From the NCBI RefSeq assembly GCF_026914265.1, contig NC_069124.1, positions 32,015,383 through 32,079,382 on the forward strand: a stretch of DNA of 64,000 bases. Direction: 5' to 3'. Under the pieces are notes generated by a model that was given only the letters and a program-made list of their open reading frames with translations, ran no database searches and was not told the DNA's origin. The stretch is from Mya arenaria. Its lineage: Eukaryota; Mollusca; Bivalvia; Myida; Myidae. Of the stretch, positions 8,228 to 55,850 are shown in pieces (the stretch's first letter is position 1; each line of letters starts with the position of its first letter). The translations under genes and the position numbers were made by a program.

Positions 8228-8712
8228 ACCCCTGGTGAGGCCCGAACCTACAACCTCTTGGGTTGGAAGCGGATCCATAAACCACTTGACCACTCTCACC
8301 TTGGTGAGGCTCGAACCTACAACCTCTTGGGTTGGAAGCTGATCCATAAACCACTTGACCACTCTCACCTTGGTGAGGCTCGAACCTACAACCTCTTGGG
8401 TGAGAAACGGACACATAAACCCATTGACCACTCCCACCCTGGTGAGGCTCGAACCTATAACCTCTTGAGTGAGAAGCAGACACATAAACCACTTGACCAC
8501 TCCCACCCTGGTGAGGCTCGAACCTATAACCTCTTGAGTGAGAAGCAGACACATAAACCACTTAACCACTCACACCCTGTTGAGGCTCGAACCTACAACC
8601 TCTTGGGTGAGAAGCAGACACATAAACCAATTGGCAACTCTCACCCTGGTAGGGCTCGAACCAACAAACTCTGGTGAGAAGTGGACACATAAACCACTTG
8701 ACCATTCTCACT
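8228..8712 (-). repeat. Seven tandem 69-bp tRNA-like units
   Basis: Seven direct copies with starts about 69 bp apart (near 8230, 8299, 8368, 8437, 8506, 8575 and 8644). On the minus strand each has an A-box-like TGGTCAAGTGG and a B-box GGTTCGAGCC about 35 bp apart, which is the internal pol III promoter layout of a tRNA. The sequence before the A box does not pair with the sequence after the T arm as an acceptor stem should, so these are not functional tRNA genes. They resemble heads of a tRNA-derived SINE amplified in tandem. The last unit is the most divergent. Confidence 0.8.
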
Positions 8713-21000: not shown

Positions 21001-24000
21001 AATGTACTTTGTCCAAACATTCCATCTCCGGACTGAAGGTCAATACTTAGCCGGTTCATCTTAGAATATAAATCATTAACAGAGTCTTTGCTAGTCTGTA
21101 TCTCTGATCTTCTGCCATTTGTATTAATAAGTGTAGAATTTTTCATCTTTGGTACTGCTTTGTTTTCCTGAGTTTTTGGTATTCTCTCCGGCTTATGATT
21201 GTCATTCAGAAATCTACTTGAATATGAGCTTTTCTTTGGTGACAAATGATGATTATTTTTGGTTGATGATCCCTGAGAATGATCTGGCAAACAATCTTGA
21301 GATACACTTCTGCCTGCACTGATGTAATAGGATTGTCCTTGATTTTGAGCACTTTCTCCATGATTTTGAGCACTTTCTTGCTTTTGTTTCCATTCATATT
21401 TATCTACATTCCATTCGTCTTCCTCAAATACTCTCCTTAGTTTACCACTTTGAGAACTCTGTCTTGCACAGTTTCTATCAGATTTATTCTTGTCCCTCTC
21501 AGAGACTTTTTCAGCAAACCTGTAAGCTGGTGTTTTCTCACCCTGTTTTCTACTGAGACCAGCCTCACTATTAGAGATTGTAGATTCATGGTTGAACACA
21601 GACGTCATCAGGTCAGGAAGGTCCCCACAATCACCTGAAATAAGTGTTATAAATGATTAATTTGGTTTTCTAAGAAAAATGTTCTGCACAATGAGTAATA
21701 CCCAGTTAACCTATTTTCGGGTTAACCTATTTTCGGAAGAGATTTCATGCCTTTTTAAATTAAGTTCCTGCAAAAATTGAGATTTTTAGAGTCATGTTAT
21801 AATTAGCAATATTGGGAATAAGAATCATGAACAAAATCATCATTTTGGGCAACATTTCTCTTTGAAATTAGTGTATTTAACCTTAAATGTTACCCAAACA
21901 TGCTGATCAATGCATTTAATATTGTAAATGTACAAAAGTTCGGAATGAATTCCATCTGCACTAAAACTCTGCGCCTTCTATAAGGAGCATGGTGCTTGTC
22001 AAGAAACAAGGCTTTTTGTGATAACAATTTCATCTCATTTGGGATTTTTTTCTTGAAATTTGGAAGAACTATATATATTTGGCATTGGAAATAGGACAGA
22101 CATTCTGAAAAATGACATGGGCAGAAAAGGGCCTGAAAGTATATATTAACTAGGATCAAAGTCACTAAGTACATTATGGCAAAAACTCTGTAATTTTAAG
22201 TATCACATGCAAAAGCAAAAAGACAGTGCATGTCTTAAAGTACTGTTCCGGGTAAATTGGGTCAAACAATTTAAACTAAGACATTTTTCTCTTGTTTATA
22301 CCAGAGCACATAAGCTGATCAAGTTCCTGAGCCAATTTGTAGCAAGTGTCACATAAACTCCCCTCATGGCTCCGGTGTGTTGCTACAGCGCTACAGTATT
22401 CACATTTATCCCCATCTGAAACATACATGTAGCACAAATTAATGTTTATACACTATCCTAGGTCTAATGAAAACAATGAGTTTTTAGAAGGTATCAAATT
22501 CTCTCCCATCCAGGGTGCAGTTCGAATCCTAGGCTCAACATTATCTACAATTGTCCCTACTTAAAACAATGTGAGAACATGTGCATGTTAATGTCTTGGG
22601 CATAATGGTGCACTCAAGCTGGCCTAGTTTGAGAGCAAGTTTCACGAGTATATGGCAGGTGTCACACACAGTTTTAAAAAGTAAACAGGATTAAAGCAGA
22701 TAAAAACAATACAGCTATCATGCTCAGGTCAAAATATCATTAACAGTGAGTTGTTTTAGCACTCCATGTCCCAGGTCTGACAGACATCTTTTGAATTAAT
22801 AATTGTATCAAAAATATTTACATGAAGTGATGTACATTATTAAGAAACTGTCTATATTTCATTCACAGCTAATTAAACAAATCAAAGTCTTGAACTAGAA
22901 ATGTTAAGGGTCTAAGATTTATGGCTTATGTTATTCATGACAGCTTTACTTAATATCTGTCTTACACACTCATACATGCTTTTGCATTTTTTTACTTCAT
23001 TAAAGGCCTATAAGTTGGGGCATGAATGTCATTAATTATAAAACACGTCTGAAAAGTTTGAAAATCATTTACAAGCATTGAAGTTTTTTTAATACTATTA
23101 TTTTTAAATCTGTAGATTATGATTACAGAGGGCATGATAACGAACCGTCTCAAGTCTGAGTTCAGACTGCAAATCTTTATTTCATTTTGTTCTTTCTTTC
23201 TAGGTGAGTTTGATAATGAAATTTGCAAAATTTAATAACTAGCTCAAATTGTACAATTATCCACATTTACTTATGTAAAATGAATGGAATCAAAATAATA
23301 CTTATAAATTTAATAAAAGTGCTTTTCTGAGTCTAAATCCAGACGTGCGACTTTTCATAAACATGGCACCAGAACCTCTGAATATACCGACCAAAACTGA
23401 GGGTGTGGCTTAAATCAATTAACTATGACTCCTACCTGTGAGCAGGTCCTGTGAATCAGGAACTTGTAGCAGCTCTCTGCGACAATACTTCTTCGACCTG
23501 TCTGCACCATCTGACCGCCTCTCTTGAACACTTCTGTCTGAAAGTTGAGAGAACAACATTTTTTTTCCTTTAGTGAGCTTGTCATGTTCTTAAAACTAGA
23601 TTTAGTAAGGATGACAATTGGTTGTGAAAGAACATCTTACAACCTTGACCCCTAGATAATGAGTAAATAGTATATCGGTCAGGTTTGGCTCTATTGAGAA
23701 AAATTATAGAAATTGAGCAGGACGCACAGCTGGACAAACAAACTTACGTTCTAATGGTGCAATTTTAATATGCCCACCCTTCAGGGGCATAAAAATACAT
23801 GGAAGTAGAAACTAACAATAGCCGGCTACTGCCTTTTGCCGGACATTACTCTTCAACCAATAAAACAAAATTAATAATATAAACTTCTACTGAGCCAGTA
23901 AAACTCTTGTTAAGTCCTCTTTGATGTCAAATACATATACAAACCAGTGTTTCTTGGTGTAGTGTTTTGACTGTCATAAGTAGGATTCTTGATGACTGTA

Positions 24001-27000
24001 TTTGGACAATGGCTGGAGTAGTCATCGTAGCTCTCATCATCACTCTCGTCAAACGACTTGTTCAGGGAAATGTCTTCAGTCTTCTGTAATACTGTCTCTA
24101 CGTCCTGAAATCACCAGACAGTATATGGTTTTCAAACATAAAGACAACAAATTCTGTAAATATCTATTATTTAACATTTATAATCCCAGAAGGAATTACC
24201 TTTGCGCAAGAGTAACACTTCTTAGTACCCAGTATCAACCTGTTAAGGGTTCCTAGCTCTCCGTCCAGGTATCAAAACTGACAATCAGTAGAGGGCTTGT
24301 CTACTGATGCAGGTTATGAAGCTATCAGGGTTTACACAGAGTACAGCAATCAGGGCTTACACAGAGTCCAGCGATCAGGGTTTACACAGAGAAGAACTAA
24401 CGGGTTTTCAGGCTCATTTAAATCAGGTACTTATTATATTGATCAAGATTTAAGAGCTTGCATACTGCTTGTCCCTACCTCACCATCGCATGTAACAAAG
24501 CTGTCACAGTCTGTGGAGGGCTCATTGTCCGAAGCACTCAGATGAAGTTTGAGAGAACTGTCCGTGCTTGAGGGTTCCTCAGTCATCTCTGGGATTGACT
24601 TCCTCTCTATGTACGGGTGGTCTGTGATGTAAATATCTTTTTTCAGTAGTGTATATATTGTACACTGAAATCATATGGTTCATACTTTTTATGTGATATT
24701 CCTATGTCCAGCATTATAAAATACATGCCATAACAATGCCATGATGTGATCATTGAAATAATCAGGGATGTGATTGACCTGGGAGCTGAAGGGCCGACAC
24801 TTTCAGAGAGGGGTTTGGATGCAGCTCTAGCACCAACTGGCTTTTTAGAAGGCGTTTGGGAGCTTTCCTGGCTTCAAATTTGGAGCAAACTGGAGTGGCA
24901 ATACTTCCTTAGCAAATAAAATTAACTATTAAAGTCAACTACAAAAAAAGTTTTCTTATTTTGTATTTGAACAAAAAATAGGCCTTTAAACTAATGTCTA
25001 AAATTTCTTGGACAAATCTATCACTGAATATTCCGATGTTGATGTATATGTTAACAAAACTTACCAATTTAACCTCATTTTTTATCAGATATTTCTATTT
25101 TTCAAATGCAGGACGTCTGTTTATATGCTAATGAAATTCACGGCTTAAACCAAATGTTTAATTCATACTTTTCAAGCCTAACAAAAAAACCTTATAAAAG
25201 CCGCCGACACTAGTAACAAAAAATCAAAAGTGAAAATTTATTTAATTTAATTTTCATATTTACCACAAATTATATAACTCTTGAGTCTCTAAATACCAAA
25301 ACATACAATTACAAATCATTCACAGAAAACCAACCAGGTGAAGTTACATCCATGAGGTGTGTGCCCTGCCCCACACCGAAGTACTGGTCCACTTGCCTCT
25401 GCAAGTGACGCTTATACACGCTTGAGTTTCTTCGATGTGTGAAGTCCCGCAGGTAGTCTTGGAGTTCTTGCGTGTCATACAGGGATGGGCTGGATTCCTC
25501 TTCAGAGTTATCAGACTTAGCACTTTCTACACTCAGCCCTGGATTATAAATACAGTGAAAACTTATAACATGTTGTCTGAAAGTATTTGGGACCTTAAAA
25601 TTACATTTGCGATAACAAAACTTCAATACATCAACCAAATTGTCCATGTGACACATCTCGAAGTATTATTTTACCTATCAGTAGTGTTAGCATCAATTGC
25701 TGAGTGTTGAACAGACATCTCGAAAACCATCAGTTTTAAAGGCCTGTCAGGTAAATTTGACTCTGTCCAACTAAATTTTTAATTGGGTCAGTCTGTTTCA
25801 CATTCACATTTCACATCCAGATGTAAAACATAATGATGATTTAATCTTTATAAATTATCAAACACCGCTTAAAAGTAAGAAAAAAATATTTTGTTAAATA
25901 AAAAATCGCGTCAATCAATATTATTGTTAATAAACATTTGCTCATGAACACTATGTCATGTTCAGTAGTGAAGATCAGTGCTCCAGCTGGGCCTAAATAG
26001 CAGGGTGGGGCACCCCGCTGCCCTTTTCCAGCACCCTGCTGCCCTTTACTACACCCTGCTGTGCCCTTTTGTTTGACAGAGTCAATTTTCAGAAATAAGT
26101 ATGAAAATAATAAATATAAATAGTTTTGACACTAAATTAAAGAAAACAGCTAAGGTATTCATAACTAACTATTAGGATTGAAAGTAATTACAACAAATAC
26201 ACAATAAGAATTCAACATTGGCCCTTGCAAGTGCCTGATCAAGGCTCAATGAAAGTGCCCTTTTTAACCTCGCACCCTGCCCTTTTCAAATCCTGGCTGG
26301 AGCACTGAAGATGTCGCAAGCCAAACATCATCCAGCATTTGTCTCCCATAGCAATACATTACCATATAATGTAAATTCAATGTGTATAGATCATGCGATG
26401 TTTTGAAACGCTACAATGATAAACTTGTGTCATGAACATTGGAATGTTTCAAAGTATAGTTTCAAATGTTCCAAACAAAAATCTTATCCTTTGAAGCATA
26501 TTATTCAATAACGAAATCGGTACCTGTACAATCTGAAAAATACACAAATATCGGAGGCTGTCAGTCCGAATGACCAACACTTTTTCTGAACTTTCGCGAT
26601 GTGTATACTTGCATATTTTTATTGATTTCTTTGTGCTTAACAGCATTACATATTATTTTTTCAGCCTTATTATCGGTCAATTGTTACCAAACAAAACTTC
26701 CAGATTACCGGTAAATCTCCTGTTTGACCAACAAAATGATTTTTATAATTTTAAGAATTCATTCATTCATTCTGGTGTCAAATTTGAGTTAAAATTGTTT
26801 TATAAAAAAACAACCCAAAAACATGTCATTGTGTAACTTGTAAAGGAATATGCTTGTCCACTGTCTATCTACTAATGCTTGATTGAGTATTGGGACATGA
26901 TAGTGAGCTTATCAGTTTCTAATCCATCTACTAGTATATGAATTATATTTCAATAGTTACATTTACTTGAAAATGTAAGTTATCGGTAACTAAAGACTAA

Positions 27001-30000
27001 TATAACAAAGATGTATCTACTAACGTTTAATGGAGTATTTGGGCGTGATAGTTGGCTCATCTGTGTCAATGATCTGTTTGACATAGTACTCGATGGTTTG
27101 GGCCGTCTCCTCATGCCCATAACTGTAGGCCAGCTCAGACGCACTCAAACCTTCCTGGAAATTGTCCCAAAAATATCCTGAATGTATTCAGATACAAAGA
27201 CATTTAATAACATATAATTAACAATTAATAATTAGATATAATTCCTCTTCTTTATTAAACACTGAAAAATTAATTACACTTGGTCAATTGCACTGTGGCC
27301 TTCTTTATTGCATACAGTCAAATAATAATCAATTTGATACATGGGCATCAAATTCCAAAACACAATCCCATGAAAGGGGTCCATTAACTCTTCCTAAATA
27401 CCAAGTTTAGTCAAGATATGTCAACCCTAACTAAATTTATTTATTTTCAATCATATTTCAATTCTTGGTAACACTTACAGTGACCTTAACCTTCACCCTA
27501 GGGCCCCCAAACACAATCCCATGAAAGATATTCTTAATTCCTTCCTACATACAAAGTTTGGTCAAGATATGTCAATCCTAACTAAAGTTATTCAGTTTCA
27601 TAGGTGAGTTTGTCAAAGGTTAAGAAGACTACCTACCCTACCTGTTTTTGAAAAAATGCAACCCTAACCGACTCAATTTTGTTGGCCCTAGAGAAAACCC
27701 TGAATGACTGTTTTATGCATCACTTGACACATACTCAGACATTTACAACTGAAAGAATGCAGAGCAGGATAGAAGTGAGAAAAACAAACCTGATCCTTGA
27801 GGAATGGATCGCCACCATTAGCAAGTAGCATACTGACACATTCTGTGAACCCCCACATGGCAGCTACATGTAGCGGAGTTGTGCCATCCTCTAGACTGTA
27901 TTTGAAAAAAAAAGGGAATAAAAATCAACTTTTGGAAAATACTAATCATTCCAAAATGGCTGTTATAATAGCAAATTCGTACATTTTGCTGAAAAAGAGC
28001 TAGTCTTGTCAAGATTTTCAGTTTGCTGAAAAAGAGATTTTGTTTATTTTTCAAGAAATATATTTCGAAGTTTGGTTTGGATTTTAACTTCAAACTGTAT
28101 GTATTCAAAAGTAGTCATTCCATGTAAAAAAAAAATTGTGTCAGTGTTTGTACGCATTCTGTTGAAAACCATTCATATTGATTAAGTGTGTAAAATAACC
28201 CTTTATCTTTCCTTATAAATATTGTTATTATTCATTTTAATGAAATTGAGTATCTTGAAATTTGCACAACACTATTGTTCATAAAGTGATAATTTGCTTA
28301 TGGTCTGCATGATTGCATAATTTGTGTGCAATGTGTATTGTATATATGAGATAGATACATGTACAATGATATTTTATTGTATGAAATCACAATGTTTTTA
28401 TATTCTCTCTTGTTTTCAGTTACAAAATACAACCGTTTTTGTGTATAAGGCTTTTGAATTAAGAAAAAAGAAATACACAGAGCAAATGTTTCGTTATACT
28501 TGTTCATTTTTTACCTGCCGTATTTCATTGACTATATGTGTATGAATTGTTTAAAACAAAATAATTTGTGTTCTGTTCTGTTTTTGGCTAAGGATGGGAT
28601 ATACATGTACATATATATGACAGTATCATAACACAATTAAAGAATCTGTATTAGCTATGAGTGTTCAAAAGCTTCTGTTAATGTTTATATTCTTTGTAAT
28701 CCAATGCAAACAATGATATGTTTATTTTATAGATACACAAAACTTTGTTAGTTATTATGATTATTTTATAGTCTCACAAAAAGAATTTTATTCTCAACTT
28801 AGTTTATAAAACTATTTTGAAATATAATGGCATTAATTATTCAACTTGAATTTTCAAGAATATACAAAATCAGATGAAATGCTCTGAACAGTAAAGACAA
28901 GATTAAATGCAAGTACAGCCTGATTTTGTTGCTAAAAATCTGTTCTCAGAAACATGTGTTGGGAATTTGATACGGAGCAGTATTTATGACTTTGCGGCTT
29001 TCCTTAGATCATTATCAGTGAGGTGTTAATAAACACTGACCCCTGGATAGCCTTTATCAAATTGAGCAGTTTTTGGGGCAAATACTTGGGACTGATTTGG
29101 CCTTTTTATTCATTGATGGAAACTGTTTTTATCAAATTGGGAAAATTTTAAATTTCGCAAATTGCAAACAGCCTTTAGAAAGCGGTAAAAGGCAACACAA
29201 AAATCACTGGCAGTATGGTAATTTTATATCCCTTTTTTAAAAGTATAAACATCATAAAGTCTTTATGATAAAACCAATTTTACACAAATATTTTGTTTTC
29301 AATCAATCCAAATAATTAGACATTAACAGTTCAAAATTAGACTGAAAAAGCCTCAATTCTTACACTTGCATTTGGCATCAGCATTTTGAACAAGCCCTGC
29401 TATATATGAATACAAAATTTAAGCAGGCCCAATAAGCAGTTTACAAGTACTTCTAGATCTCCAAAGATTTTAAACATAAATAATATTATATGAGAACAAA
29501 AATTAAAAAGATATACCTGACATTAGGGTCTCCTCCATACTGTAAGAGCAAGCTCAATGTTTTTAGCCCCAGTCCTGCAGCCAGGTGCATTGGCGATGCT
29601 CCAACAAACTGGCTGATCTTGTTTGGGTCTGCTCCTCCATCCAGCAGGTACTCAGCATCCCTGTATAGAATTAAACACCTTATTTTAACAACCCGGTACA
29701 GTTTTAGCTTACAAGTTATTGAAGGCACCTGGTCACTCGCTCAAATTCTGAATAATTAATGAATATAAAGAAGGGCTTGTACAAAAATTTGATGCCAAGC
29801 AATAGTATAAGAACTACAATTTAACACCGGGCAAAAGAATTGATAGTAATAATGCATCGATGTTGAATGATAATGACAATTGTTCAATATATTCCCGACA
29901 GTGATCTAAACTGGATTTAATTTATTATAAGGGTCGTTATTTTCACATAAATAATATATTTTGGGTCACAATTACTGTTGTACATGTACACAACCTGTCA

Positions 30001-33000
30001 GATTTGTCCCAGATTTACAGATATCGGGATACTTGGTAAACAATTGACACATATATATAAGTGTTTAATAGTAGGCAATAATATTTACATAGAAAAAATT
30101 TATAATGGAGATAATTTCAAAGTTGAGGCCGCCACGATTCTTTGTGTAAGGACCGTATGCTACTTTTTGCTGGGATGGTTGACCTCATGAGTCAGCCATA
30201 GTAAAAAAATCATCAAAAGACTCGTTGACTGGAATGTAGGTGGACAAGTATACACTTGAAAGTTGTTGTGTAACAGGGTTACGAAACAAATGTCAAAATG
30301 ATTAAAAACTCAAACTTTTTGAAAGTATATATCCTGAAGTGTCGGTCTAGCCACAATAATGCCTGTAAGGGGAACCTTCGTTATGTAACAGTTATGCACC
30401 AGTCAATTGTAACCACGGCCCTCCCAGGTCCGGGGATATACCGGGGATAGCCGGGAAAATGGGCAGTGTTTTTACCTTCCAAGTGGCCCCCCAGTGCCAG
30501 GTAAATATGTTGGTTTTATTTTCGGGCCAAAACTAGCGGGGAATGGTCCTTTCCTATGGTCTTGCACTGGGGCGCAGGGCCATTTGGCGGGAATTTAACC
30601 AGCAGTTCGTCCCCGCTGGCCGTTGATTTTACCCCCGCTTGGCTTGACTGAAAGTCAAAGTCCCCGCTATTGCCCCGACCGTGGTTACAATTGACTGGTG
30701 TACTACTGGGTATGATTTACAGAAGCCCAACATCAAGTGTTGAAAACGACCAAAAACTTATTAACTTGATAAACAGCTCTGTTTCATTAAAATATGACCA
30801 ATATGTGTTATTGGGAGACTTTAATTACAAAGACATTGATTGGAAAAAATGTGAAAGTAAGTACTCAGAGGGAGCATCGGGAACCAAATTTTTAGATTGT
30901 GTACAGGATAATTTTCTACACCAACACGTTTTGTCAGAGACACGGTTTAGACATAACCAAGCACCCAGTTGCTTAGACTTGGTTTTTACAAATGAAGATT
31001 CAGTTATCAACCAAGAGACAATAACTATTAATTCCCCTCTGGGATGTAGTGACCATTCTATGATAAGTTTTGAGCTGGACGCTTCATACGTGAATCATAA
31101 TGAGACGAATGAGAGATTTCAATACTATAAAGGTAATTATGAAAAAATCAGAGAAGATCTTTCTAGTGTAAACTGGGACAATTTGATGGAGGGGAAAAGT
31201 GTAAACGAAATGTGGATTGTGTTCAGAGATACTTTATGTGACAGTGTAGACAAACATGTACCAAAGAAAAAGTCCAGTATCAAGAAATGTAACAGTCCAT
31301 TATGGTTAGACAGAAATACAAAACTTGCAACTATAAAGAAAAACAAAGCTTGGAAGAAATACAAATATTCTAGATCTACGACAAATTATAATAAGTATGC
31401 AGAGGCAAGAAATGAATGTTCTAGAGAAGTTAAAAGTGCCAAGAGAAATTACGAACAGAAAATTGCTTCTGAAGTGAAAACGAATGCAAAGTCGTTTTGG
31501 AGATATGTAAATTCTAAAAGGAAGACAAAGGACAAAATAGGTGATCTTAACAAGAGTGACAATACCACAGCAGTGACAGATGAAGAGAAGTCTGAGGTAC
31601 TAAATGGTTTCTTTAGCAGTGTATTCGTGAGAACAGACCCTATTAGTGACTCAATTGAAAGGGATATAAATGTTCAGAACCTGCTTATTGATTTACATAT
31701 TACTCCTGAACATGTGGATAAAGTGCTTAAAACTCTGAAGCCAGATAAATCTCCTGGACCTGACAATATTCACCCAAAAGTTTTAGGTGAAACAAGTGAT
31801 TTAATCAGTTATCCATTGTACTTACTATTTAGTAAATCCTTGAGAGAAGGAGAAGTCCCAGAAGACTGGAAAAAGGCGATTGTCACACCCATTTTTAAAA
31901 AAGGAAGTAAAAAGGATCCTAGCAATTATAGGCCAGTGAGTTTAACGTGTATTATTTGCAAACTTTGTGAAAAGCTAGTTCGTGATGCATTAATGATCCA
32001 CTTGAATCAAAACAAACTTTTATCCAATGACCAATACGGATTTAGAAGTGGCAGGTCCTGTGCAATTCAACTTCTTGAAATATTAGACGAATGGACTCAA
32101 CTGATAGACGAAGGTAACCCAATTGATGTGATTTACTTGGATTTTAGTAAAGCTTTCGATAAGGTGGCACATGATCGTCTGTCTATGAAACTGAATAATC
32201 TTGGTATCTGTGGTACAGTACATAAATGGATAAAATCATTCTTACAACATCGTGTCCAAAGTGTTCGTATTGGATCATGCGTTTCATCTTGGTCAAACGT
32301 GGTCAGTGGGGTACCTCAGGGAAGCGTGCTGGGACCGGTGCTGTTCTTGTGCTTTATAAATGACTTGCCGCAAGTGGTGGAGGGTATAGTGAAGATTTTT
32401 GCAGACGACACTAAGATTTATTCGGCCATAAGCGATCCTCAACAATGTGAAAAGTTACAGCAGGATCTTGACAATTTATGTAACTGGAGCACTGAAAGTA
32501 AACTTAGCTTTAATGCAGGCAAATGCAAGGTCATGCACATTGGGTCTAATAATGATTGTGCTAGATACACTATGCAGGACATTGATGGAAACTGCGTTAA
32601 AGTCGAGTCAGTTGCTTCAGAAAAGGACTTAGGTGTGATTTTTGATTCGAGGCTAACTTTTGAAGAACACATCACAGAAATTGCTTCCAAAGCACACAGA
32701 GTTACTGGAATGATATGGAGATCCTTTGAGTTCATGAACAAAGATATGTTTCTCAACCTTTATAAGTCAATTATTAGACCAATTGTAGAATATGGCTCTT
32801 GTGTATGGTCTCCATACCTAAAGAAGGACATAAAAAGACTAGAGGATGTTCAGAGACGCGCCACCAAATTAGTTAAAGATGTATCGGACTTGTCATATGA
32901 GCAAAGACTAAAAGCCTTAGGAATTCCAACTCTGGAATATAGACGAGATAGGGCGGATATGATCCAGATTTATAAGTCTGTGTATGGCCACGATGAGTTA

Positions 33001-33733
33001 AAATGGGATCATCTCTTCACTCTTTCGTCTGGAGACCTAAGAGGACATCATCTCAAATTTGTCAAGAAGAAAAGCAAACACAATTCAAGACTTTATTCAT
33101 TCAGTCAGAGATCGATTATGTACTGGAATTCCCTTAGTGAAGAGACTGTTTCTGCCAAGTCCATAAACCAGTTTAAATCAATGCTTAATATTGAACATTG
33201 GAATAGAAAAAAGTTTTTATGTTAACATAACCGCACTCAGTTGAGAAACCACTAAAGAAGACATTTACCAGAGGGGCCACGATAGCGAAAGCTAAATTTA
33301 CGGCCTGAAGATTACAGATTACAGATTACAGATATGGTGCAATACCCAAACAAAAGAACGTCAAAAGACTCTGAAACGGCTGTTTAAACCAACTACAGAC
33401 GTACAGTACTGGATGGCGACACCCATACCTCTGTTACACTTACGGAGGCCTGGTAAATGCACGATGATAAGTTACTATTTTTATTCGCAACAAGCAGTAA
33501 CAGGATACCATCAAAAAGAATACACATAATACGAAATTGAAAGTGGTCAAATTCATTTAAAATGCAGAATAAATATTGAGTTCAAGAATCACATTTTCAA
33601 TACAGATAAGCTACGTATTTATAATAAAAGATTTAGCATGAAATTTTAAATATTCATCCAACCCAAAATTATTCTCTTGTAAACAAACTGCAAGGTCAAT
33701 ATTGTTGTTTTTGTTTATGTTGTTTTTCGCCAT
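15043..33733 (-). CDS. ANKLE1: ANKLE1 orthologue: ankyrin, LEM and GIY-YIG endonuclease protein
   Basis: Fifteen exons keep frame throughout and predict 1144 residues: 33733-33663, 29660-29517, 27895-27790, 27154-27025, 25538-25335, 24621-24479, 24104-23945, 23537-23436, 22415-22302, 21634-20125, 19786-19659, 18490-18296, 17059-16938, 16304-16175 and 15218-15043. Ankyrin repeats fill residues about 10-145 (DGGADPNKI, SPMHLAAGLG, TTPLHVAAMWG). A CxxC...CxxC pair lies near 355-390. LEM is near 885-925 (DPGPVTITTRQQYLRRL). The GIY-YIG nuclease lies near 1015-1120 (VYIGKGKRARPYSHL, ILDIWGSGQGVVSLHC, EAYTREAAMVDAIG), and the end FLAEGERQISPVDI matches vertebrate ANKLE1. In vertebrates and worm (LEM-3) it cleaves DNA bridges at late division. 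This protein is nearly twice the human length because exon 10 (1510 bp, Ser/Asn-rich) is long. The exon 1 and exon 5 donors (GTTGG) are weak. Confidence 0.93.
15310..15580. mobile_element. hAT-like MITE, copy 2 (best preserved ends)
   Basis: Lies in ANKLE1 intron 14. The left end TAGGGATGTGATTGAC and the right end CCAATCACATCCCTG are inverted copies, 271 bp apart, flanked by AAAAG on both sides. The interior contains GGGTGAAGCATCCTGCAGCA. Non-coding. Confidence 0.8.
16686..16885. mobile_element. hAT-like MITE, copy 3 (degraded)
   Basis: Lies in ANKLE1 intron 13. It shares GGGTGAAGCACTCTGCTGCA, AGTAGCAGAACTAGCTTTT and GGGCTCTCCTGACTTCAAAT with copies 2 and 4. The right end is ATCATATCACTG. 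The left end is poorly kept. Confidence 0.6.
17696..18101. mobile_element. MITE with CAGGGCTTCCATTAA ends
   Basis: Lies in ANKLE1 intron 12. The left end CAGGGCTTCCATTAA is matched by TTAATGGAAGCCCCCAG about 400 bp away. The interior repeats TTGGAAGT/ACTTCCAA words. No coding capacity. Confidence 0.7.
19148..19537. mobile_element. Possible MITE with TTAAAG ends
   Basis: Lies in ANKLE1 intron 11. The left end is ACTTAAAGATGCAC and the right end, read inversely, is CCTTAAAGTGACAATCTTAT. The inverted similarity is short, so the call is tentative. Confidence 0.35.
24763..25026. mobile_element. hAT-like MITE, copy 4
   Basis: Lies in ANKLE1 intron 5. It begins CAGGGATGTGATTGACC and ends in a degraded ATCTATCACTG. 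The interior shares GGAGCTTTCCTGGCTTCAAA and TTGGAGCAAACTGGAG with the other three copies. Confidence 0.7.
25976..26307. mobile_element. hAT-like MITE with CAGTGCTCCAGC ends
   Basis: Lies in ANKLE1 intron 4. The left end CAGTGCTCCAGCTGGGCC and the right end read inversely as CAGTGCTCCAGCCAGGATT are imperfect inverted repeats. AAGAT lies directly outside both ends. The interior repeats CACCCTGCTGCCCTTT. Non-coding. Confidence 0.8.
27340..27600. repeat. Two diverged direct copies of a dispersed repeat
   Basis: Lies in ANKLE1 intron 3. ACACAATCCCATGAAAG, AGTTTGGTCAAGATATGTCA and CCTAACTAAA words occur in order twice, about 150 bp apart. This is a degenerate tandem pair of the kind seen in bivalve introns. 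Confidence 0.5.
30397..30700. mobile_element. MITE with 22-bp perfect inverted ends
   Basis: Lies in ANKLE1 intron 1. CACCAGTCAATTGTAACCAC at 30397-30416 continues GG, and CCGTGGTTACAATTGACTGG continues TG at 30679-30700. These are exact inverted copies over 22 bp. The interior is unusually GC-rich for the window, with repeated CCCCGCT and CCGGGGATA words. The LINE coding sequence starts immediately after its right end. Confidence 0.9.
30701..33331 (+). mobile_element. CR1/jockey-like LINE, 5'-truncated, reverse transcriptase frame open
   Basis: One open frame runs to 33225. The first in-frame ATG is at 30712, and codons before about 30701 belong to the neighbouring MITE. The start falls inside the APE-type endonuclease, whose remaining motifs are LLGDFNYKDIDW, CLDLVFTNE and CSDHSMISF. 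The reverse transcriptase is complete: SPGPDNIHPKVL, NYRPVSLTCI, DQYGFRSGRS, VIYLDFSKAFDKVAHDRL, GVPQGSVLGPVLF and the catalytic FADD in KIFADDTKIY. The 3' end carries three GATTACA units near 33309-33331, as expected of CR1/L2-like tails. No stop or frameshift is seen in about 2.5 kb, so the insertion is recent. It lies antisense in ANKLE1 intron 1. N-terminal ORF1 and the first part of the endonuclease are missing. Confidence 0.93.
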
Positions 33734-39481: not shown

Positions 39482-40442
39482 CTATCTGCCCATGATAGCT
39501 GCCAATGCCCCTAGTCCACCCAGAGTTGCGGTGTACAAAAGGCCCTTCCATACTTTGTCCTCAACATTGCTTTCATCAGAGAAGTAGTCAGCAAAGCCTT
39601 CCTGAAATCAAAGATCAAGTCTTTACACAAATAAAACAATAACAATTCTTTAAAATTTCATCATTAATACAATATACCTTATTCATTTTAACAAGTCTTA
39701 TAGAATATGTTCAATGAGTATGACTTGAAATTAGTATTAGATTTCCAGCAATTTTTTAACAAGTCTATGGAAAGAACACCAGGAAGTCATCATTTCCCCT
39801 GCAGTATGGATTCAGCCAATTTAACATCTATCTTTGTATGATCTTGGGTAAGAAGTTCCTTACCCATCCATGATTATCTAATATCCAACGTCCCAACTTA
39901 TTGCCAACATATTTCCCAACAAATAGAGCTATTTTGTCATCTTGATTTGTGTTTTGTTTTCGGAAATGAGAAGTCAATCTTGCTGCAAAAGCATACACAA
40001 CTATTATTCTTCCCCAGTTTATCTGTCCATCTTCGAAGATTTCATCAGCCACATGAATAAATGTTTGAAACATGTTCCCATCATCAATATTTAACTTGTT
40101 GACCATAGATTTCAAAACGATGTCATGTCTATCCGAAACTTCTTTCACCGTTTTCCTCATTGTTTTACAGAATCTGTTGGGAGATTTTCTCTGGTTTTCT
40201 AGTCCAATGTTTTGAACAATGTCAAAGGCTATCACCTCAGCTTCTTTTCTGACACTTTCAAGCGGGGTCATAGAAGAGCCAGACGTCTGTGAGCTCTGTT
40301 CGATGTTGTTTAGTCCTTGGTTTCCAGGAAGAAGGCCCCATTTTTTGTGGATTTCAGTGAAGAGATTGTTGGAATTTTTGCCTAAAACGCCAGTACCAGA
40401 AATAGTTTTCATACCACCGTATGTTGGGCTAGTGGCGGTCAT
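39482..40442 (-). CDS. MCL1-like: MCL1-like BCL2-family survival protein
   Basis: Two exons, 40442-39864 and 39601-39482, joined in phase 0, predict 232 residues. The upstream in-frame GTG at 40511 is not a credible start. The ATG at 40442 (context ACAATGACC) is used. Motifs: a BH3-like segment at 94-106 (TMRKTVKEVSDRH), BH1 at 140-156 (INWGRIIVVYAFAARL), and BH2 rebuilt across the splice (WILDNHGWEGFADYF). A hydrophobic tail follows (about 211-230, LLYTATLGGLGALAAIM) and would anchor it in the outer mitochondrial or ER membrane. The splice inside BH2 after Trp is where BCL2 genes are usually split. Spacing and residues (RHDIVLKSMVNKLNI) resemble MCL1 more than BAX or BAK, so a survival role is inferred. 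In the BH3-like segment the usual Gly-Asp is Lys-Glu. Confidence 0.87.
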
Positions 40443-41355
40443 TGTTAATTTCACTTGGCTGAATAAAAGGAGAAAAGAAGAGGCGAAAAACCCCAAACAC
40501 TCGGTCGACACTCCTCAATCCGTTTTCGCAAAATGGCGACAATAACAAGCAGTCGTCACATATCTAACATATCTATGACTTCCGGTATCTATATTTAGAA
40601 ACGGTAAGCCCTCTTTGTTGAGGGATGCTCTCAAGATATATTGAAATTACAAAACATGTCATACATGTAACTTAAGTGATTATCTTCTAAAAACAATGTT
40701 CGAATAAAGGTATCATTCAACAAATATAGAAACTCTGTTTTCTGGTCTTATATCGACTAAATGCTGAATAAAATGGATCGCCATTCCATTAATCTTGATT
40801 CAACCCCTACCATATTTATAGAAAAATCAAAAGTACTATTTTTGTAAGGTTGACGTCACAGGAAAATACCAAGTTATTTAGATAACCGTTTGTTTCACAA
40901 TCTTGCCTTGGACTTTCGGGAAGAACAAGTAGGTACTTATTAAGGGGAAAATAATTACACTTTGTTTAATTATTGTAATAACTGATACATGATTACATGT
41001 TTAATCGTTCACAATAATCATTTTCTTGGGTTACTGTGAATCCCATTTGATTTATTGATTTGTGTCTGACTGGCTCACAATATATGTATACACCTACTGT
41101 ATAACTAAGTATACAGTAAAGATGTATATGTCGACAAAATAAAAGTAAAATCGATCAAAAAAGAAGATGTTTGACTTATTTAACATGCTTATGATACCGT
41201 CTTCAATAACGGTTTGTTAATTTATGATAGGCCTCATTTATTCACAATAGAACAGGGTATTGTTATCAGATACATGTACAATGTACACATATATACATGG
41301 ATAAAGAAACAGAACTTTATTATATTGATCCCTGTATTTTTTAGGTAAACACAGG
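40443..41355. promoter_or_regulatory. Shared upstream region of the divergent MCL1-like and BH3 genes
   Basis: About 0.9 kb separates the two start codons. A splice acceptor (TATTTTTTAG at about 41335-41344) shortly before the plus-strand ATG implies a 5' UTR exon inside this interval. No TATA box or known site is claimed. Confidence 0.4.
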
Positions 41356-41832
41356 ATGTCGGGTGCAGAATTTGCAGACCTAGTTCACGAAATGATGTAC
41401 GTGCTTAAGGACGAATTCGATGTTGGAGAAATTGACGATGGTGATGGGGACTATTGTGAAACGCCCGATGATTGCAGACATGAAGGAGATATTGTTGACG
41501 ATGAAGCAAGTCTTATTCGTGAGCAAATAGAACTAGACATAGTTCGCCCGTTAAATGTAAACGATGGTCAAGGCAATGAAGAAAACAACGTTGACATTTC
41601 TCGTGAAAGTAATGATTTTTTCGAGAATTCTTGCGAAAACAATGACCATAATTGTAATACCTTATGCGGACGAATTTTAAGATTAATGGGTGACGAAGAG
41701 AATTGTCGAGTTTTGGGGAGACACTTGAGGAACATTGGCGACGATGTATTTCACCGGCAGACAGCTAAATATATGTTTGATCTGCTTGAAGATTTGATGG
41801 AACACGATAATCTTGAAACAGGGACATTCTAA
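41356..41832 (+). CDS. Candidate BH3-only protein, 158 residues
   Basis: Single coding exon with ATG at 41356, preceded by an acceptor-like TTTTTTAG that suggests a non-coding 5' exon. Residues 1-100 are acidic and disordered-looking (about 30 Asp or Glu). Residues 118-134 (RVLGRHLRNIGDDVFHR) fit the BH3 consensus at every key place: h1 L120, h2 L124, h3 I127, small G128, invariant D129 and h4 V131. It resembles the BAK segment VGRQLAIIGDDINRR and BIM LRRIGDEF. An amphipathic helix follows (KYMFDLLEDLMEH). There is no BH1, BH2 or membrane tail, which argues for a BH3-only initiator rather than BAX or BAK. It sits head to head with an MCL1-like gene. Function is inferred from one short motif. 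An alternative is an unrelated acidic protein with a chance match. Confidence 0.62.
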   Translation: MSGAEFADLVHEMMYVLKDEFDVGEIDDGDGDYCETPDDCRHEGDIVDDEASLIREQIELDIVRPLNVNDGQGNEENNVDISRESNDFFENSCENNDHNCNTLCGRILRLMGDEENCRVLGRHLRNIGDDVFHRQTAKYMFDLLEDLMEHDNLETGTF

Positions 41833-43084
41833 GTGAATTACGGGTCCGTGCATGGCCAAAGAAGAGTTCGCCACATGTGCACTTTGCCCAAGTCGAAGGC
41901 TGTATTGACACGGTGCGTTCTGCCGTACATTTTCACTTAATTGTTGCACATGTTCAGTGATGAAAAATTTGTAGGATTGTATTATATATGTCGTATCTGA
42001 AAGATGATTCTAATGATAATTATGTACAGTTGTGATGCTTTATTTTTTATTTATGTAAATTGTTTTGTGATTAAATGTAATAATTACCAACATTTGTTTT
42101 CTGGACTGGACTGGCGGGGTAGGGGTGGGGGGAGTTCAATCGGCTCAACTTCACCTCAGAAATTCGTCGAAGAGAGAGAACACCAGACTGCAACATTTCA
42201 GAAGAAAAATAGCACTTCTCACATTTTTACCATACATGTATCGATTCTGGAGAAGGGGAGGGGGACATTTCTTAAGCTGTGTCCAGACCCCCCTACGTCA
42301 TCATCAACATTAAACCCCTGTATTCGATCCACGGGCTGCATGTAACCCCAATGCATGTTAATACGGATATCTAGTCATTCCTTAAAATAATGCTCAATTC
42401 CAATGTTTTTTTTCCGTCGTACCACCTGCAGTTTAAGGCATGTATGTTTGTGGAGGTGTGGGCCCGGGGGGTACGGGGGAAGGGTGCATTCTCCATTGAA
42501 AACAAACAAACATCCTATTACCAGTGTCCCCGCTTGAACCCGTTATGGACGAGTGAAACAATCTTCATTAAGGGAAAACAACACAGCTGTCACTTAAATC
42601 AATGACAGTATGTTATTGTTAAGGTAAGTGGTGCTAACTATATATTTAAAGGGCAATCTCTTCGAGAACAAGCTGGTTGATTGTTGTCTCAATTGGTCAT
42701 TGTGAGAGTAATTTATTGCATGTTAATGTCATTGTTGATGGAAAATGCACGTAATAAAAGGTCTGCCGACCTTAGACTAGATTGTTATAGAAGCGGCATA
42801 TTGCAATATTGAGATTGAGGTCATAACTTTGGGCATTCAAGAGAGAGGGGTGTCGAAAAGATTCAGTCCCCGAATGAGTTTATTTTTGTAAATATATCAG
42901 GATCTACATATGCCTATATAACATGCAAACGATACTAAAGATTGATTATATTATACTTTTTTTTCTTCCATATAATGCGCTGGGGGTCTTAAATTACTAT
43001 GGCTTACTTAGATCAACGAGACACTGTACGTGGTGGTAGCAAACCTATATTGTACCAATAATGTTTAAAATTATATACACATTT
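41833..43084. other. Intergenic, no gene seen
   Basis: The first part is the likely 3' UTR of the BH3 candidate. ORFs around 42004-42605 have no recognisable similarity and lie in low-complexity G-rich sequence. Confidence 0.35.
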
Positions 43085-46107: not shown

Positions 46108-49100
46108 ATGTTTACCCAATGTAGAAAAGTGCTTGTGGTTGGGATCAGCGGGTATGCTTACACTTATTAGCCTGTGTGTTTCTCAAAGTAAAATAGTCAA
46201 GTTATTGTAATAGCCTTTGTGCCATGGTCGTTACGTTAGTGCAAAAACTAAATTACTTTCGCTAAAAACTTAGTAAACATATTGTCAAAGACAGTATGTA
46301 CAAAACACACATGTACAGCAAGGCCCATAACTCTGGCTTAACTAAATGTTGAGTTATGCCCCTTTTATACTTAAAAAAACCCCCAAAACGAGCATTGGCA
46401 TTTGCTCTGCAGTATTCTTGTCTTGAAGTACTTCAATTTGTTTCTTTTTTGAGCTAAGCAGGTCCTATGGTGGCAAGAGGATAAGTGTGTCCATTATTTG
46501 AATTATAATAATTGCAAAATATCAATTTTTCTAACATATTCAATGAACTTTGAGACTGTTTTTTCTACAAAATTTTGGGACAAGCCTTGTATTTTAGTAT
46601 TCTTTATGAAAGTAGACTGTATACTTTACAATGACATTGAACACTCTTTTATCATAGGACTACAAACAGCGGCAAGTCCACAGTGGCGAGTAAACTGGTT
46701 CAGCTGATTCCCCGGAGCCACCATGTGTGTCAAGACTATTACTACCTACCCCCAGGGGACCAGAGACTGGCTCCCATATACATAGAGAAACTAAATCACC
46801 ACAACTGGGAAGGTTTGAACATTTATGTTATCATTCTTGGTGGTTGTCAATGCTTTGCATGGACATCTTGTCATTCTGGGTTGTAAATGCATGCAACTGC
46901 TTTTAATTGTGTCCGATATGATACCATCATGCCATGCCAATGCCTGCATTCAAATATTTATTATTTGGAAATCATACAATGTTTAAGAATGCTACATGCA
47001 TTGAACCATGCATGTATACCCAGTGTTCGAAATAAGCACAAGCCCGTAAGCCCTGTACTGGTCAAATGTTTTCTGGGCTTACTTGAAATCTAGATTTTAT
47101 GTATCAGAGCTTGTTGAAAGATTTGGATGTCAAGCACTGGTGCATGTTTATCTTGGAAGTCCAATTTCGATGACTGTATACTTTCCAGTATGGCTATTCT
47201 GTCATGAATGTCTTGCATACCTTTACAGCAAAAGTCGACATGTTTAGAATGCATCATTTTGTAGCATGCATGTATCAGATGGAATAAAAAATTTGGGTTT
47301 CCGTATAAAATCGAATCTGTAAGTAAAAAAACAATTTTTCAATTCATTGGAGCAAATCGTTACACCTCTAATCTAGATATATAACTCTTCAGATTACCGC
47401 TCCCTAGAGATGGACCGGATGGTAAATGATGTGAAGACGCTCGTCTCGACGCTACAGAATACAGAAGAGGGACAGGCTTACGTGTTCATTGAGGGATTCT
47501 CAATATTTGGATGGAGGTATTCACTCGCATCTTAGATTCAGAAGAGATAATTTCACTCGTCTTTCGTAGGAAAGGTCAGGTTGCCGGACACCTACAACAG
47601 TTTTTCTAGACCTATGAAAAAAAATTGGATCTGATTTGTGCATGAATGCTCATTATGTAAAGTAGTTCAGATCCAGTTTAAACATATTGAAATGTCATGA
47701 TTTGTTTGCAATTTTGCAGCTTTGACAGACTTTAAAATGGCCCTACTGTACCTTATCTTTTTTTTGAGACCTTTGCCTTAAACAAAGATACATTATTTTT
47801 AGGCCTAAGATGCATTTCTAATGAAATCGGCTAGGGATTTAGAAATCCATGTACATAAAATGTAAATATAGTTGTTACCTTATAAAATCTATTTCAGACC
47901 GTTATCTAGTCTGTTTGACCTGAAGTATTTCCTCATGGTGGACAAGGAGACATGTTGGAATAGACGCCAGTATGTTTTACCGCTGAATAGTTAAGCTAAG
48001 AAAAATATATTCTTCAAATTGCTTATAAGCAGTTGAAATAATAATTGAAGGAATTTTTATATAATTTTACATATTATATTCGAAGTACAATATTTTGTAA
48101 TTTATTCGAAATTGGCAAAGTCGAAAATCAATGAAGAAACATGATAAATGTGATGCAAATGAGGTAATATATGTTTCTAGCCAGTTCTATTACTGTGGCT
48201 ATAATAGTTTTTCAGTTATGTCGGTAATACTTTCGAAATCAAAAATCATAAAAACAACAACAGTTTTTCCCAAGGATCAGCCAACCATATGAGTTTTTTT
48301 TCGTTTAATTCCAGATACAGGGACTACGACCCACCAGATGTACCTGGCTACTTCGAGCAGTATGTCTGGCCATTGCACGAGAAACACATGGAAGCCATCA
48401 GTGACCAAGAAGATATAGGTTTGTTATGTGTTGAGCTTATTTGTCAATCTCGTGCAAAGAAGATTTAAATGCTTATACAAGTTCCTTTCTGTGTTGGAGT
48501 TGACTTGTTCTAGTTTGCAAAAAAGTTCGGTAATATAGCTGTTAATGTTAGTTTAGACTAGTTTTCGTTGAGAAATATTTGCTAAGACTAAGTAAATAAA
48601 ACATGTAAAATTGATAAAATTAAGTTTTAGTCAAGGCTGTTGATTTAATATGGAACCTTGATTCGATCTTCTTTCGGCTGTTTTTAAAGCAAATAGTTTT
48701 TCCTTAGCATTTCTGTTATGCCATCCTTGTTCAAAACCTTGCTTAAAACCTGTTAACATGAAACTTTGTTCTCTTTTTAAGGCATAAAAAAAATACATTT
48801 GGTTTGAGGTAAACCCGACTCTACCTATTAAATAGGCGCCAGTTAAATAACAAAACAAAAAAAAATGTATATATATATATTTTTTTAAATACCTGTTTTA
48901 ATATATACTTTAAAACCTTTAAAGCTTTATAGAGAAGATTACTTTAACACCTTTTGGCCTTATAATGACAAAGTGCATTTGACAGGCTTGTGCCGTAACT
49001 CTGTAAACATATTTCTTGAGATAAGTCCCTTGACATATGTCTCGTATATTTCCAGTCTATTTAGGAAACACTGACAGCCTTGAGGACAGAGTAAACCGGA

Positions 49101-49440: not shown

Positions 49441-50806
49441 TACAAGCCCCACAAACGAAGTTTGAGGGGGTATATAGGAGTGAGCTTGTCGGTCGGTCTG
49501 TCGGTTTTCATGGTTTCCGGACGATAACTCATGAAAGGCTAGACAGATTTGAAAAAATTTTGGTACACAGGTGTAACATCAGAAGATACAGGTCAAGTTC
49601 GATATTGGGGCTGGTGGGGCCAAGGTCAAGGTCACTGTTACTAAAAATAGAAAAACGGTTTCCGGACGATAACTCATGAAAGGCTAGACAGATTTGAAAA
49701 AATTTTGGTACACAGGTGTAACATCAGAAGATACAGGTCAAGTTCGATATTGGGGCTGGTGGGGCCAAGGTCAAGGTCACTGTTACTAAAAATAGAAAAA
49801 CGGTTTCCGGACGATAACTCATGAAAGGCTAGACAGATTTGAAAAAATTTTGGTACACAGGTGTAACAACAGAAGATACAGGTCAAGTTCGATATTGGGG
49901 CTGGTGGGGCCAAGGTCAAGGTCACTGTTACTAAAAATAGAAAAATGGTTTCCGGACGATAACTCATGAAAGGCTTGACAGATTTGAAAAATTTTGGGTA
50001 CACAGGTGTAACATCAGAAGATACAGGTCAAGTTCGATATTGGGGCTGGTGGGGCGAAGGTCAAGGACACTGTTACTAAAATAGAAAAACGGTTTCCGGA
50101 CGATAACTCATGAAAAGCTTGACAGATTTGAAAAATTTTTGGTACACAGGTGTAACATCAGAAGATACAGGTCAAGTTCGATATTGGGGCTGGTGGGGCC
50201 AAGGTCAAGGTCACTGATACTTAAAATAGAAAAACGGTTTCTGGACGATAACTCATGAAAGGCTAAAAGGATTTGAACAATTTTTGGTACACAGGTGTAA
50301 CATCAGAAGATACAGATCAAGTTCGATATTGGGGCTGGTGGGGTCAAGGTCACTGTTACTAAAAATAGAAGAATGGTTTCCGGACGATAACTCCTGAAAG
50401 GCTTGACAGATTTGAACATTTTTGGTACAAAGGTGTACATTTCAGAAGATACAGAAATGAGTTTGATATTGGGGCTGGTGGGGTCAAGGTCACTGTTACT
50501 AAAAATAGAAAAATGGTTTCTGCTTCATAACTTTAATTGGGCATGAGATATTGTGATGAAACTTGCTGTATAGGCAGCCTCTGTGAAGACAATGCTTGTG
50601 ATTGAAAATGGGGCCAGTGGAGTAAAGGTTTTTGTGCACTGTTACGAAAATAGAAAAACGGTTTCCGGACAAACAATACATGCATGATAAAAGAAGATGC
50701 AGTGTGCAGTAACCTTGGAGTTATGGCCTCTTTTCAAAGGAATGGTTTGCCATTCCTGTGTCCAGGCGGCATTTGGGGGTATTCGTCACTCCTGTGACAG
50801 CTCTAG
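49441..50806 (+). mobile_element. Helitron-like non-autonomous element with 145-bp internal tandem repeats
   Basis: Starts ACAAGCCCCACAAACGAAG and holds seven to eight direct units of about 145 bp, each opening GGTTTCCGGACGATAACTCA and ending CAAGGTCAAGGTCACTGTTA. The right end has a perfect 5-bp-stem hairpin, GTCACTCCTGTGAC at 50785-50798, followed by CTCTAGT. A hairpin a few bases before CTRR and then T is the Helitron 3' end signature. The left terminus is less certain. ORFs inside are by-products of the repeat. It lies at the NMRK poly(A) site. Confidence 0.65.
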
Positions 50807-54964: not shown

Positions 54965-55850
54965 ACTAATTGAATTTGTGATCGCCTTTTGTCCGTCGTG
55001 CGTCGTCCGTCAACAATTTACTTAAAAGACATCTCCTCCTTAACCGCTGGGCCAATATTAATAAAACTTCATAGGGATGTCCCTTGGGTGGTCTTCTATC
55101 AAAGTTGTTCAAAGAATTCAATTCCATGCAGAACTCTGGTTGCCATGGCAACCAAAAGGAAAAACCTCTTCTCCCAAACCACAAGGCTTAGGCCGTTGAT
55201 ATTTGGTAGGTAGCATCACCAAATGGTCCTCTACCAAGATTGTTCAAATTATGGCCCTGGGGTCAAAATTGGCCCCGCCCCCGGGGGGTCATGGGTTTTC
55301 TCTATATGTTTATAGTAAAAAAAATAAAAAATCTCCTCTGAACTTACGTTGCTTAGAGCTTAGATATTTGGCATGATTCATCGTCTAGTGGACCTCTACA
55401 AAGATTGTTCAAATTATGGCCTTGGGGTCAAAATTGGCCCCGCCCCGGGGGGTTAGGGTATTCTCTATATGTTTATAGTTAAAACTTCAAAAATCTTCTC
55501 CTCTGAACTTACTTGGACTAGAGCTTAGATATTTGGAATGATTCATCGTCTAGTGGACCTCTACAAAGATTGTTCAAATTATGGCCTTGGGGTCAAAATT
55601 GGCCCCGCCCCCTGGGGGGTCATGGGTTTTCTCTATATGTTTATAGTGAAAACTTCAAAAATCATCTCCTCTGAACTTACGTGGCTTAGAGCTTAGATAT
55701 TTGGCATGATTCATCGTCTAGTGGACCTCTACAAAGTTTGTTCAAATTATGGCCCTGGGGTCAAAATTGGCCACACCCCGGGGCTGATGGGTTTTCTCTA
55801 TATGTGTTATTGTGAAAACTTAAAAAATCTTCTCCGAACCTGAGTTCATT
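54965..55850. repeat. Dispersed element with four tandem 166-bp units
   Basis: Opens with GTCCGTCGTGCGTCGTCCGT, then repeats about every 166 bp: GCTTAGATATTTGG at about 55357, 55523 and 55690, each followed by GGACCTCTACAAAGATTGTT, GGGGTCAAAATTGGCCCCGC and TTTTCTCTATATGTTTATAG. The first, more diverged, unit starts near 55190. Non-coding. Confidence 0.85.

What the first reader, a model, noticed from the sequence alone, without database searches (positions are those of the whole stretch)
41356..41832. Candidate BH3-only protein in a mollusc
Residues 118-134 match the BH3 pattern (h1-x3-h2-x2-h3-G-D-x-h4) at every key position, in a 158-residue protein with no BH1, BH2 or membrane tail. BH3-only proteins are well known in vertebrates and nematodes (EGL-1), but as far as I know few are characterised in molluscs. 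The match is seen in the sequence. The role is inference.
Basis: partly seen in the sequence, partly recalled or inferred. Interest (0 to 1): 0.82.

Follow-up and report, generated by a model that had tools for sequence, protein, structure and literature searches.

The report
Candidate BH3-only cell-death gene
A short gene next to a BCL-2-type cell-survival gene carries a convincing copy of the BH3 peptide that switches such survival proteins off, making it a good but untested candidate death trigger in an invertebrate, perhaps a mollusc.

Summary
The ORF at 41356-41832 (+) encodes 158 aa, and L120-x3-L124-x2-I127-G128-D129-D130-V131 matches the BH3 pattern at every key position. The bare pattern is weak evidence (0.63 expected per random window). 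A profile of 12 known BH3s ranks this ORF first of 2,111 six-frame fragments (E 0.0014; next 0.48; best single domain 0.055). None of 20,000 shuffles reached its full score. Codon usage looks coding. No BH1, BH2 or hydrophobic tail was found in the ORF. The one BCL-2-fold gene found in the window starts 913 bp away, head to head; a second exon with a hydrophobic tail makes it 232 aa. Best explanation: a largely disordered acidic BH3-only protein that frees BAX/BAK by occupying the groove of prosurvival proteins, perhaps including its neighbour. Binding, expression, conservation and the mollusc assignment could not be tested. Three papers say no BH3-only homologue was found in bivalves or molluscs; a 2022 survey lists candidates in five mollusc species. 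So this is a new member of a known kind; the tight pairing with a survival gene is its most interesting feature.

The parts
41356..41832 (+). Uninterrupted ORF, 158 aa, very acidic (42 D/E, 12 K/R; pI 4.1): candidate BH3-only protein
   Evidence: codon log-odds 0.202 per codon against 0.071-0.207 for the 7 ORFs the measure was trained on and -0.182 to 0.027 for the other five frames; no Pfam family
41701..41766 (+). BH3 22-mer, residues 116-137; core L120-x3-L124-x2-I127-G128-D129-D130-V131
   Evidence: the only two PDB sequences matched at E<=10 are PXT1 peptides (E 0.79, 0.9)
41665..41700 (+). Second, weaker BH3-like stretch, residues 104-115 (C104..L108..M111-G112-D113); position h4 is Glu
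   Evidence: 5.6-bit HMMER domain; its 22-mer (residues 100-121) scores 6.0 bits, 5th in the window; internal-repeat test not significant: 31 of 300 shuffles reach 6/12
41331..41355 (+). Pyrimidine-rich stretch and AG (41343-41344), 11 bases before the ATG: possible splice acceptor of a 5' exon; in-frame stop just upstream at 41326-41328
   Evidence: sequence; splicing not shown
42070..42075 (+). ATTAAA, possible polyadenylation signal 238 bases after the stop (another at 42309)
   Evidence: no AATAAA in the 868 bases scanned
39864..40442 (-). Neighbour, exon 1: BCL-2-fold protein, residues 1-193, BH1 NWGR at residues 142-145, BH2 at 186-193
   Evidence: Pfam PF00452 E 2.6e-23
39602..39863 (-). 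Neighbour, predicted intron of 262 bases directly after the BH2 Trp (GTAAGG ... TTTGATTTCAG)
   Evidence: the 204-aa ORF reads into it
39482..39601 (-). Neighbour, predicted exon 2: 39 residues plus stop, with a hydrophobic C-terminal stretch as in a tail anchor; spliced protein 232 aa
   Evidence: most hydrophobic 19-mer, mean 1.47, starts at residue 213; one MCL-1 chain matches up to residue 228
40443..41355 (.). 913-bp region between the two divergent start codons; YY1-like site (AAAATGGC, motif recalled) at 40530, CpG o/e 0.86 against 0.55 for the window; no p53-type element

Best explanation
The ORF is a real gene for a mostly disordered BH3-only protein. On stress or developmental induction its BH3 helix (residues ~116-137) folds into the hydrophobic groove of prosurvival BCL-2 proteins: L120, L124, I127 and V131 fill the four pockets and D129 pairs with the conserved BH1 arginine (R145 in the neighbouring protein's NWGR). 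That would release BAX/BAK-type effectors and trigger cytochrome c release. Shown: the ORF, the motif and its excess over chance, no BH1/BH2 found after it, and the adjacent prosurvival-type gene with a BH1 arginine. Inferred: expression, binding, killing, the neighbour's splicing, and that the neighbour is a partner.
For: Every key BH3 position filled. Profile rank 1 of 2,111 fragments, E 0.0014; 0 of 20,000 shuffles at the full score, 3 at the best-domain score. Matrix score 10.05, above the leave-one-out scores of 3 of 12 known BH3s (BAX 7.49, BIK 8.27, BOK 0.97) and below the other 9. Closest is BAK, 7 of 12 core residues. The only PDB sequences matched by the 22-mer are PXT1 BH3-type peptides, though at E 0.79-0.9. 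Coding-like codon use; 2 ATG ORFs of >=158 aa in 60 random windows. The one gene found with BH1 and BH2 in the window is 913 bp away. Charge-hydropathy puts residues 1-100 as disordered. [quoted passage not shown]
Against: BH3 is a short degenerate motif that can arise by convergence (PMC10107002 passages); strict matches occur in E. coli proteins too (2 in 42). Best single domain only E 0.055. HMMER's alignment of the core inserts one residue, V131, after D130. 54 of 20,000 shuffles reach the matrix score. Residues 101-158 fall just on the folded side of the charge-hydropathy line. AlphaFold model uninformative (pLDDT 37.7, one sequence). No Pfam family. [quoted passage not shown] No membrane tail, which the same review says most BCL-2-family members, BH3-only included, have. 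No orthologue, transcript or binding data.
Confidence: 0.68

Rival explanations
1. A protein of unrelated function whose helix matches BH3 by chance.
For: The strict regex is expected 0.63 times per random window and occurs twice in 42 E. coli proteins. Human BH3-like peptides from unrelated, mostly folded proteins can bind prosurvival proteins as peptides (PMC4072508, section 12). No Pfam family. The finding was picked by eye, from how many windows is not known to me.
Against: Profile E 0.0014 within the window and shuffle tests; adjacency to the one BCL-2-fold gene found in the window.
Confidence: 0.2
2. A truncated BAK/BAX-type effector that has lost BH1, BH2 and the tail, or a mis-modelled gene whose later exons encode them.
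For: The core is closest to BAK (7 of 12), and a stretch modelled as helix (131-150, low confidence) follows.
Against: The only other BH1-like pattern on the plus strand is in a 24-aa fragment at 38510, upstream, and no BH2-like pattern; the spliced neighbour finds nothing but its own two exons in the window (next phmmer E 4.7, tblastn E 3.5); only two GT sites (41746, in the V131 codon, and 41775) lie between D129 and the stop. A whole-frame Pfam scan for diverged exons could not be run.
Confidence: 0.07
3. The ORF is the last exon of a longer protein that begins upstream; the BH3-like stretch is then one part of a larger protein.
For: A pyrimidine-rich stretch plus AG lies 11 bases before the ATG.
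Against: The ATG has A at -3 and an in-frame stop lies upstream; only 913 bp separate it from the divergent gene; a 5' UTR exon explains the acceptor equally well.
Confidence: 0.05

Closest known systems
BAK BH3 region
   Same: 7 of 12 core residues identical, including G-R-x-L and I-G-D-D (BAK peptide typed from recall)
   Different: BAK goes on with BH1, BH2 and a membrane anchor (recalled); none found here
PXT1 peptides (PDB 7wjh, 8gsv)
   Same: Only PDB sequences matched by the 22-mer: L-x3-L-R-x-I-G-D
   Different: E 0.79 and 0.9, not significant; the chains are 26- and 29-residue peptides, so nothing outside the motif could be compared
BIM/BID/PUMA-type BH3-only proteins
   Same: Single clear BH3, no other BH motif, acidic likely disordered remainder; 5 of 12 core residues each with BIM, BID and PUMA
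   Different: No hydrophobic tail; full-length protein has no PDB match; outside the BH3 not compared with these proteins directly
Candidate mollusc BH3-only proteins (Octopus, two Crassostrea, Mizuhopecten, Lottia) in PMC8998228 Figure 5
   Same: Same class and, if the mollusc guess is right, same phylum (legend seen)
   Different: Their sequences are in a figure not held here, so orthology is unknown
EGL-1 (C. elegans) and sayonara (Drosophila)
   Same: Invertebrate BH3-only death inducers; EGL-1 shares 4 of 12 core residues; sayonara passages read
   Different: Sayonara has two coiled-coil domains; PMC10107002 and PMC8998228 both regard BH3-only proteins of distant animals as possibly unrelated by descent

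Membership tests
BH3-only proteins | BH3 core: four hydrophobic positions, L-x3-[G/A/S]-D | tested here: met
   minimal definition from PMC10107002 passages
BH3-only proteins | No BH1, BH2 or BCL-2 fold | tested here: met
   0 Pfam families; no BH1/BH2 pattern in the ORF; the 27 residues after V131 are too few for the fold (inference). Unseen 5' exons not excluded
BH3-only proteins | Intrinsic disorder outside the motif | tested here: inconclusive
   Charge-hydropathy: 1-100 disordered, 101-158 borderline folded; AlphaFold pLDDT 37.7 from one sequence
BH3-only proteins | BH3-dependent binding to prosurvival BCL-2 proteins | not testable with these tools
BH3-only proteins | Induces apoptosis in a BH3-dependent way | not testable with these tools
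   Needs experiment
BH3-only proteins | Motif conserved in orthologues | not testable with these tools
   No animal collection; scans of viral and prokaryote contigs found no relative of the ORF
BAX/BAK-type effectors | BH1 and BH2 after BH3, and a C-terminal anchor | tested here: not met
   (most hydrophobic 19-mer averages 0.27)
Prosurvival BCL-2 proteins (neighbour gene) | BCL-2 domain with BH1 NWGR and BH2 | tested here: met
   PF00452 E 2.6e-23; NWGR 142-145, BH2 186-193
Prosurvival BCL-2 proteins (neighbour gene) | Closer to prosurvival than to BAX/BAK members | tested here: inconclusive
   The 60 shown of 169 PDB sequence matches are BCL-XL, BCL-2, A1, MCL-1, NRZ and other Bcl-2-like names, none called BAK or BAX (109 not shown); the fold search also lists BAK and BAX entries among its 50 shown
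Prosurvival BCL-2 proteins (neighbour gene) | Tail anchor on a separate exon | tested here: inconclusive
   Predicted exon 39482-39601 with good splice signals; most hydrophobic 19-mer 1.47, just under the usual 1.6 cut-off (recalled); separate exon stated in PMC7022251
MCL-1 (neighbour gene) | Closer to MCL-1 than to other prosurvival proteins | tested here: inconclusive
   MCL-1 E 8.8e-14, Trichoplax Bcl-2 6.8e-16, NRZ 3.8e-14, A1 8.9e-14

The most novel reading that the evidence does not exclude
A physically paired life/death switch: a BH3-only gene and its prosurvival target transcribed head to head from one 913-bp region, the BH3-only protein carrying two BH3-like helices in tandem. Shared control would let one promoter region set the ratio of killer to protector.
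Probability: 0.12. Interest if true: 0.7.

Novelty: new member of a known kind. Interest (0 to 1): 0.5.

Why it matters
Papers on mussel and oyster apoptosis say that no BH3-only homologue was found in bivalves or molluscs (PMC3634015, PMC5550854, PMC8917759; passages seen), and PMC5550854 suggests that this may mean a less complex network. A later survey lists mollusc candidates by sequence and asks for experimental confirmation of such proteins (PMC8998228). A candidate with a strong BH3 next to its possible target makes the question directly testable with one peptide and one receptor.

Tried and rejected
Rejected: the bare BH3 regex as proof (0.63 per random window). Rejected: a significant internal duplication of the two BH3-like stretches (6/12 identity, reached in 31 of 300 shuffles). 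Rejected: origin of the motif from the neighbour's own BH3 region (1 of 12 core residues shared, against 7 of 12 with BAK). Tested, no support: p53-type response element in the intergenic region, 0 sites with up to 3 mismatches, 0.17 expected. Hydrophobic moment of residues 118-135 (0.524) is like BAK's (0.526) but not unusual against shuffles (1,694 of 20,000).

Led nowhere: PDB search with the full protein (0 matches) and with residues 97-158 (one chemosensory protein, E 0.42); AlphaFold of the ORF (pLDDT 37.7); scans of viral contigs with both proteins and of prokaryote contigs with the ORF; Rfam and tRNA scans for taxonomic clues; literature search for BH3-only genes in head-to-head pairs (517 papers hold two of the four terms; all 20 listed have 0 occurrences of BH3-only, the rest not seen). 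In the first phmmer run the printed list was cut before the neighbour's rows; it was repeated with the spliced neighbour.

Full report
What was checked. The window was read around the finding, ATG ORFs of 100 aa or more were listed (19), and the ORF at 41356-41832 was translated. The BH3 positions are L120, L124, I127, G128, D129, D130 and V131.

Is the ORF a gene? Sixty first-order random windows gave 2 ATG ORFs of 158 aa or longer in all. Codon log-odds, trained on seven other long ORFs of the window, are 0.202 per codon in the reading frame and -0.182 to 0.027 in the other five. The seven training ORFs themselves score 0.071-0.207 (not left out in turn). Of seven further ORFs scored, two antisense and two others without known match score -0.162 to -0.025, a repeat ORF -0.012, a 115-aa ORF 0.038 and the SAP-domain ORF 0.119. 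The training set is small and mixes host and transposon genes. The ATG has A at -3, an in-frame stop lies upstream (41326-41328), a possible splice acceptor lies 11 bases before the ATG, and ATTAAA follows 238 bases after the stop. No transcript could be examined.

Is the motif more than chance? The strict pattern is found once in six frames but is expected 0.63 times per random window. Two graded tests used 12 BH3 peptides typed from recall (A1). A PDB search with that profile returned BH3 peptides, two designed foldamers and BCL-2-family chains among the 60 shown of 139. A matrix ranks the 22-mer first of 37,375, with 54 of 20,000 shuffles as high. A HMMER profile ranks the ORF first of 2,111 fragments with E 0.0014, helped by a second weaker domain at residues 104-114; the better domain alone has E 0.055. 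No shuffle of 20,000 reached the full score and 3 reached the domain score. The matrix score is inside the leave-one-out range of real BH3s (0.97-32.1), above 3 of 12 and below 9. The 22-mer's only PDB matches at E up to 10 are two PXT1 peptides. In 42 E. coli proteins no 22-mer reached the score and the best HMMER match was E 0.093, but the strict regex matched twice. These tests allow for the size of this window, not for the number of windows the first stage may have read.

What surrounds it. The one other gene found with BH motifs lies head to head, start codons 913 bp apart. Its 204-aa ORF has a Pfam Bcl-2 domain (E 2.6e-23). That ORF probably runs into an intron: GTAAGG directly after the BH2 tryptophan, TTTGATTTCAG at the end of 262 bases, then an exon giving EGFADYF and a hydrophobic tail (mean 1.47 over 19 residues); the spliced product is 232 aa. 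With the second exon the best PDB matches are Trichoplax Bcl-2 (so named), zebrafish NRZ, BCL-2/BCL-XL, MCL-1 and A1. So it is prosurvival-like, subgroup unresolved. The single-sequence model of the 204-aa ORF is low in confidence (pLDDT 47.2); one fold match has E below 0.001 (Bcl-xL), and the 50 shown include BAK and BAX entries. BH1 is NWGR at 142-145; the arginine is the usual partner of the BH3 aspartate (recalled).

Is it BH3-only? No BH1 or BH2 pattern lies in the ORF, and on the plus strand the only BH1-like one is in a 24-aa fragment upstream at 38510. The spliced neighbour finds only its own exons in the window (next phmmer E 4.7, tblastn E 3.5). Between the BH3 aspartate and the stop there are only two GT sites (41746, 41775). 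The most hydrophobic 19-mer of the ORF averages 0.27, so there is no tail anchor. Residues 1-100 fall on the disordered side of the charge-hydropathy line and 101-158 just on the folded side. [quoted passage not shown]

Mechanism. By analogy with BIM, PUMA and EGL-1 the peptide would fold into the groove of prosurvival proteins and release BAX/BAK effectors. In the Pacific oyster the BH3 domain mediates binding between Bcl-2-type and Bak/Bax-type proteins, and the authors conclude that Bak/Bax induce cytochrome c release (PMC5550854, passages), so the machinery exists in molluscs. That this protein does so is inference. Co-regulation with the neighbour is speculation: the region has raised CpG content and a YY1-like site near the neighbour's start, and no p53-type element.

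Literature. PMC3634015, PMC5550854 and PMC8917759, passages only, say no BH3-only homologue was found in bivalves or molluscs. PMC9389742 (passages) calls squid Bnip3 BH3-only and notes Bid absent. PMC8998228 (passages, sections 8 and 21) says BH3-only proteins are potentially present in Lophotrochozoa, and its Figure 5 legend lists Octopus bimaculoides, Crassostrea virginica, C. gigas, Mizuhopecten yessoensis and Lottia gigantea; the alignment is not held. PMC7022251 (passages) reports BH3-only components in schistosomes. PMC9171138 (one passage) and PMC10107002 (passages) warn that BH3 motifs are degenerate and can arise by convergence. PMC4072508 (abstract and outline, sections 9 and 12, part 1 of 16) shows BH3-like peptides from unrelated proteins can bind. 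Searches; each lists at most 25 papers of an open-access library, so absence from print is not shown.

Limits.

Verdict. It is a new member of a known kind.

Noticed in passing
window 16110-29740 (-): Scattered exons of one probable gene with ankyrin repeats (29489-29740, E 2.2e-5; 27691-27924, E 9.1e-9) and a LEM-3-like GIY-YIG nuclease domain (16110-16502, E 1.2e-16): an ANKLE1/LEM-3-type gene (that the pieces form one gene is inferred).
   Followed up: partly
window 39482-39601 (-): Predicted second exon of the neighbouring BCL-2-type gene, with hydrophobic tail, not in the 204-aa ORF.
   Followed up: yes
window 41665-41700 (+): Second BH3-like stretch 16 residues before the main one.
   Followed up: partly
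window 46641-46883 and 48208-48465 (+): Fragments that recall nicotinamide riboside kinase to the eye (P-loop-like GKST; PPDxPGYF); no Pfam family for either and no PDB match at E<=0.01 for the first.
   Followed up: partly
window 30712-33225 (+), 62814-63923 (-), 1559-2611 (-): Probable mobile-element genes: reverse transcriptase with endonuclease, integrase, YqaJ-type exonuclease.
   Followed up: no
window 5339-7666, 8230-8711, 49510-50520, 55224-55835: Tandem-repeat arrays with units of about 163, 69, 145 and 165 bases.
   Followed up: no
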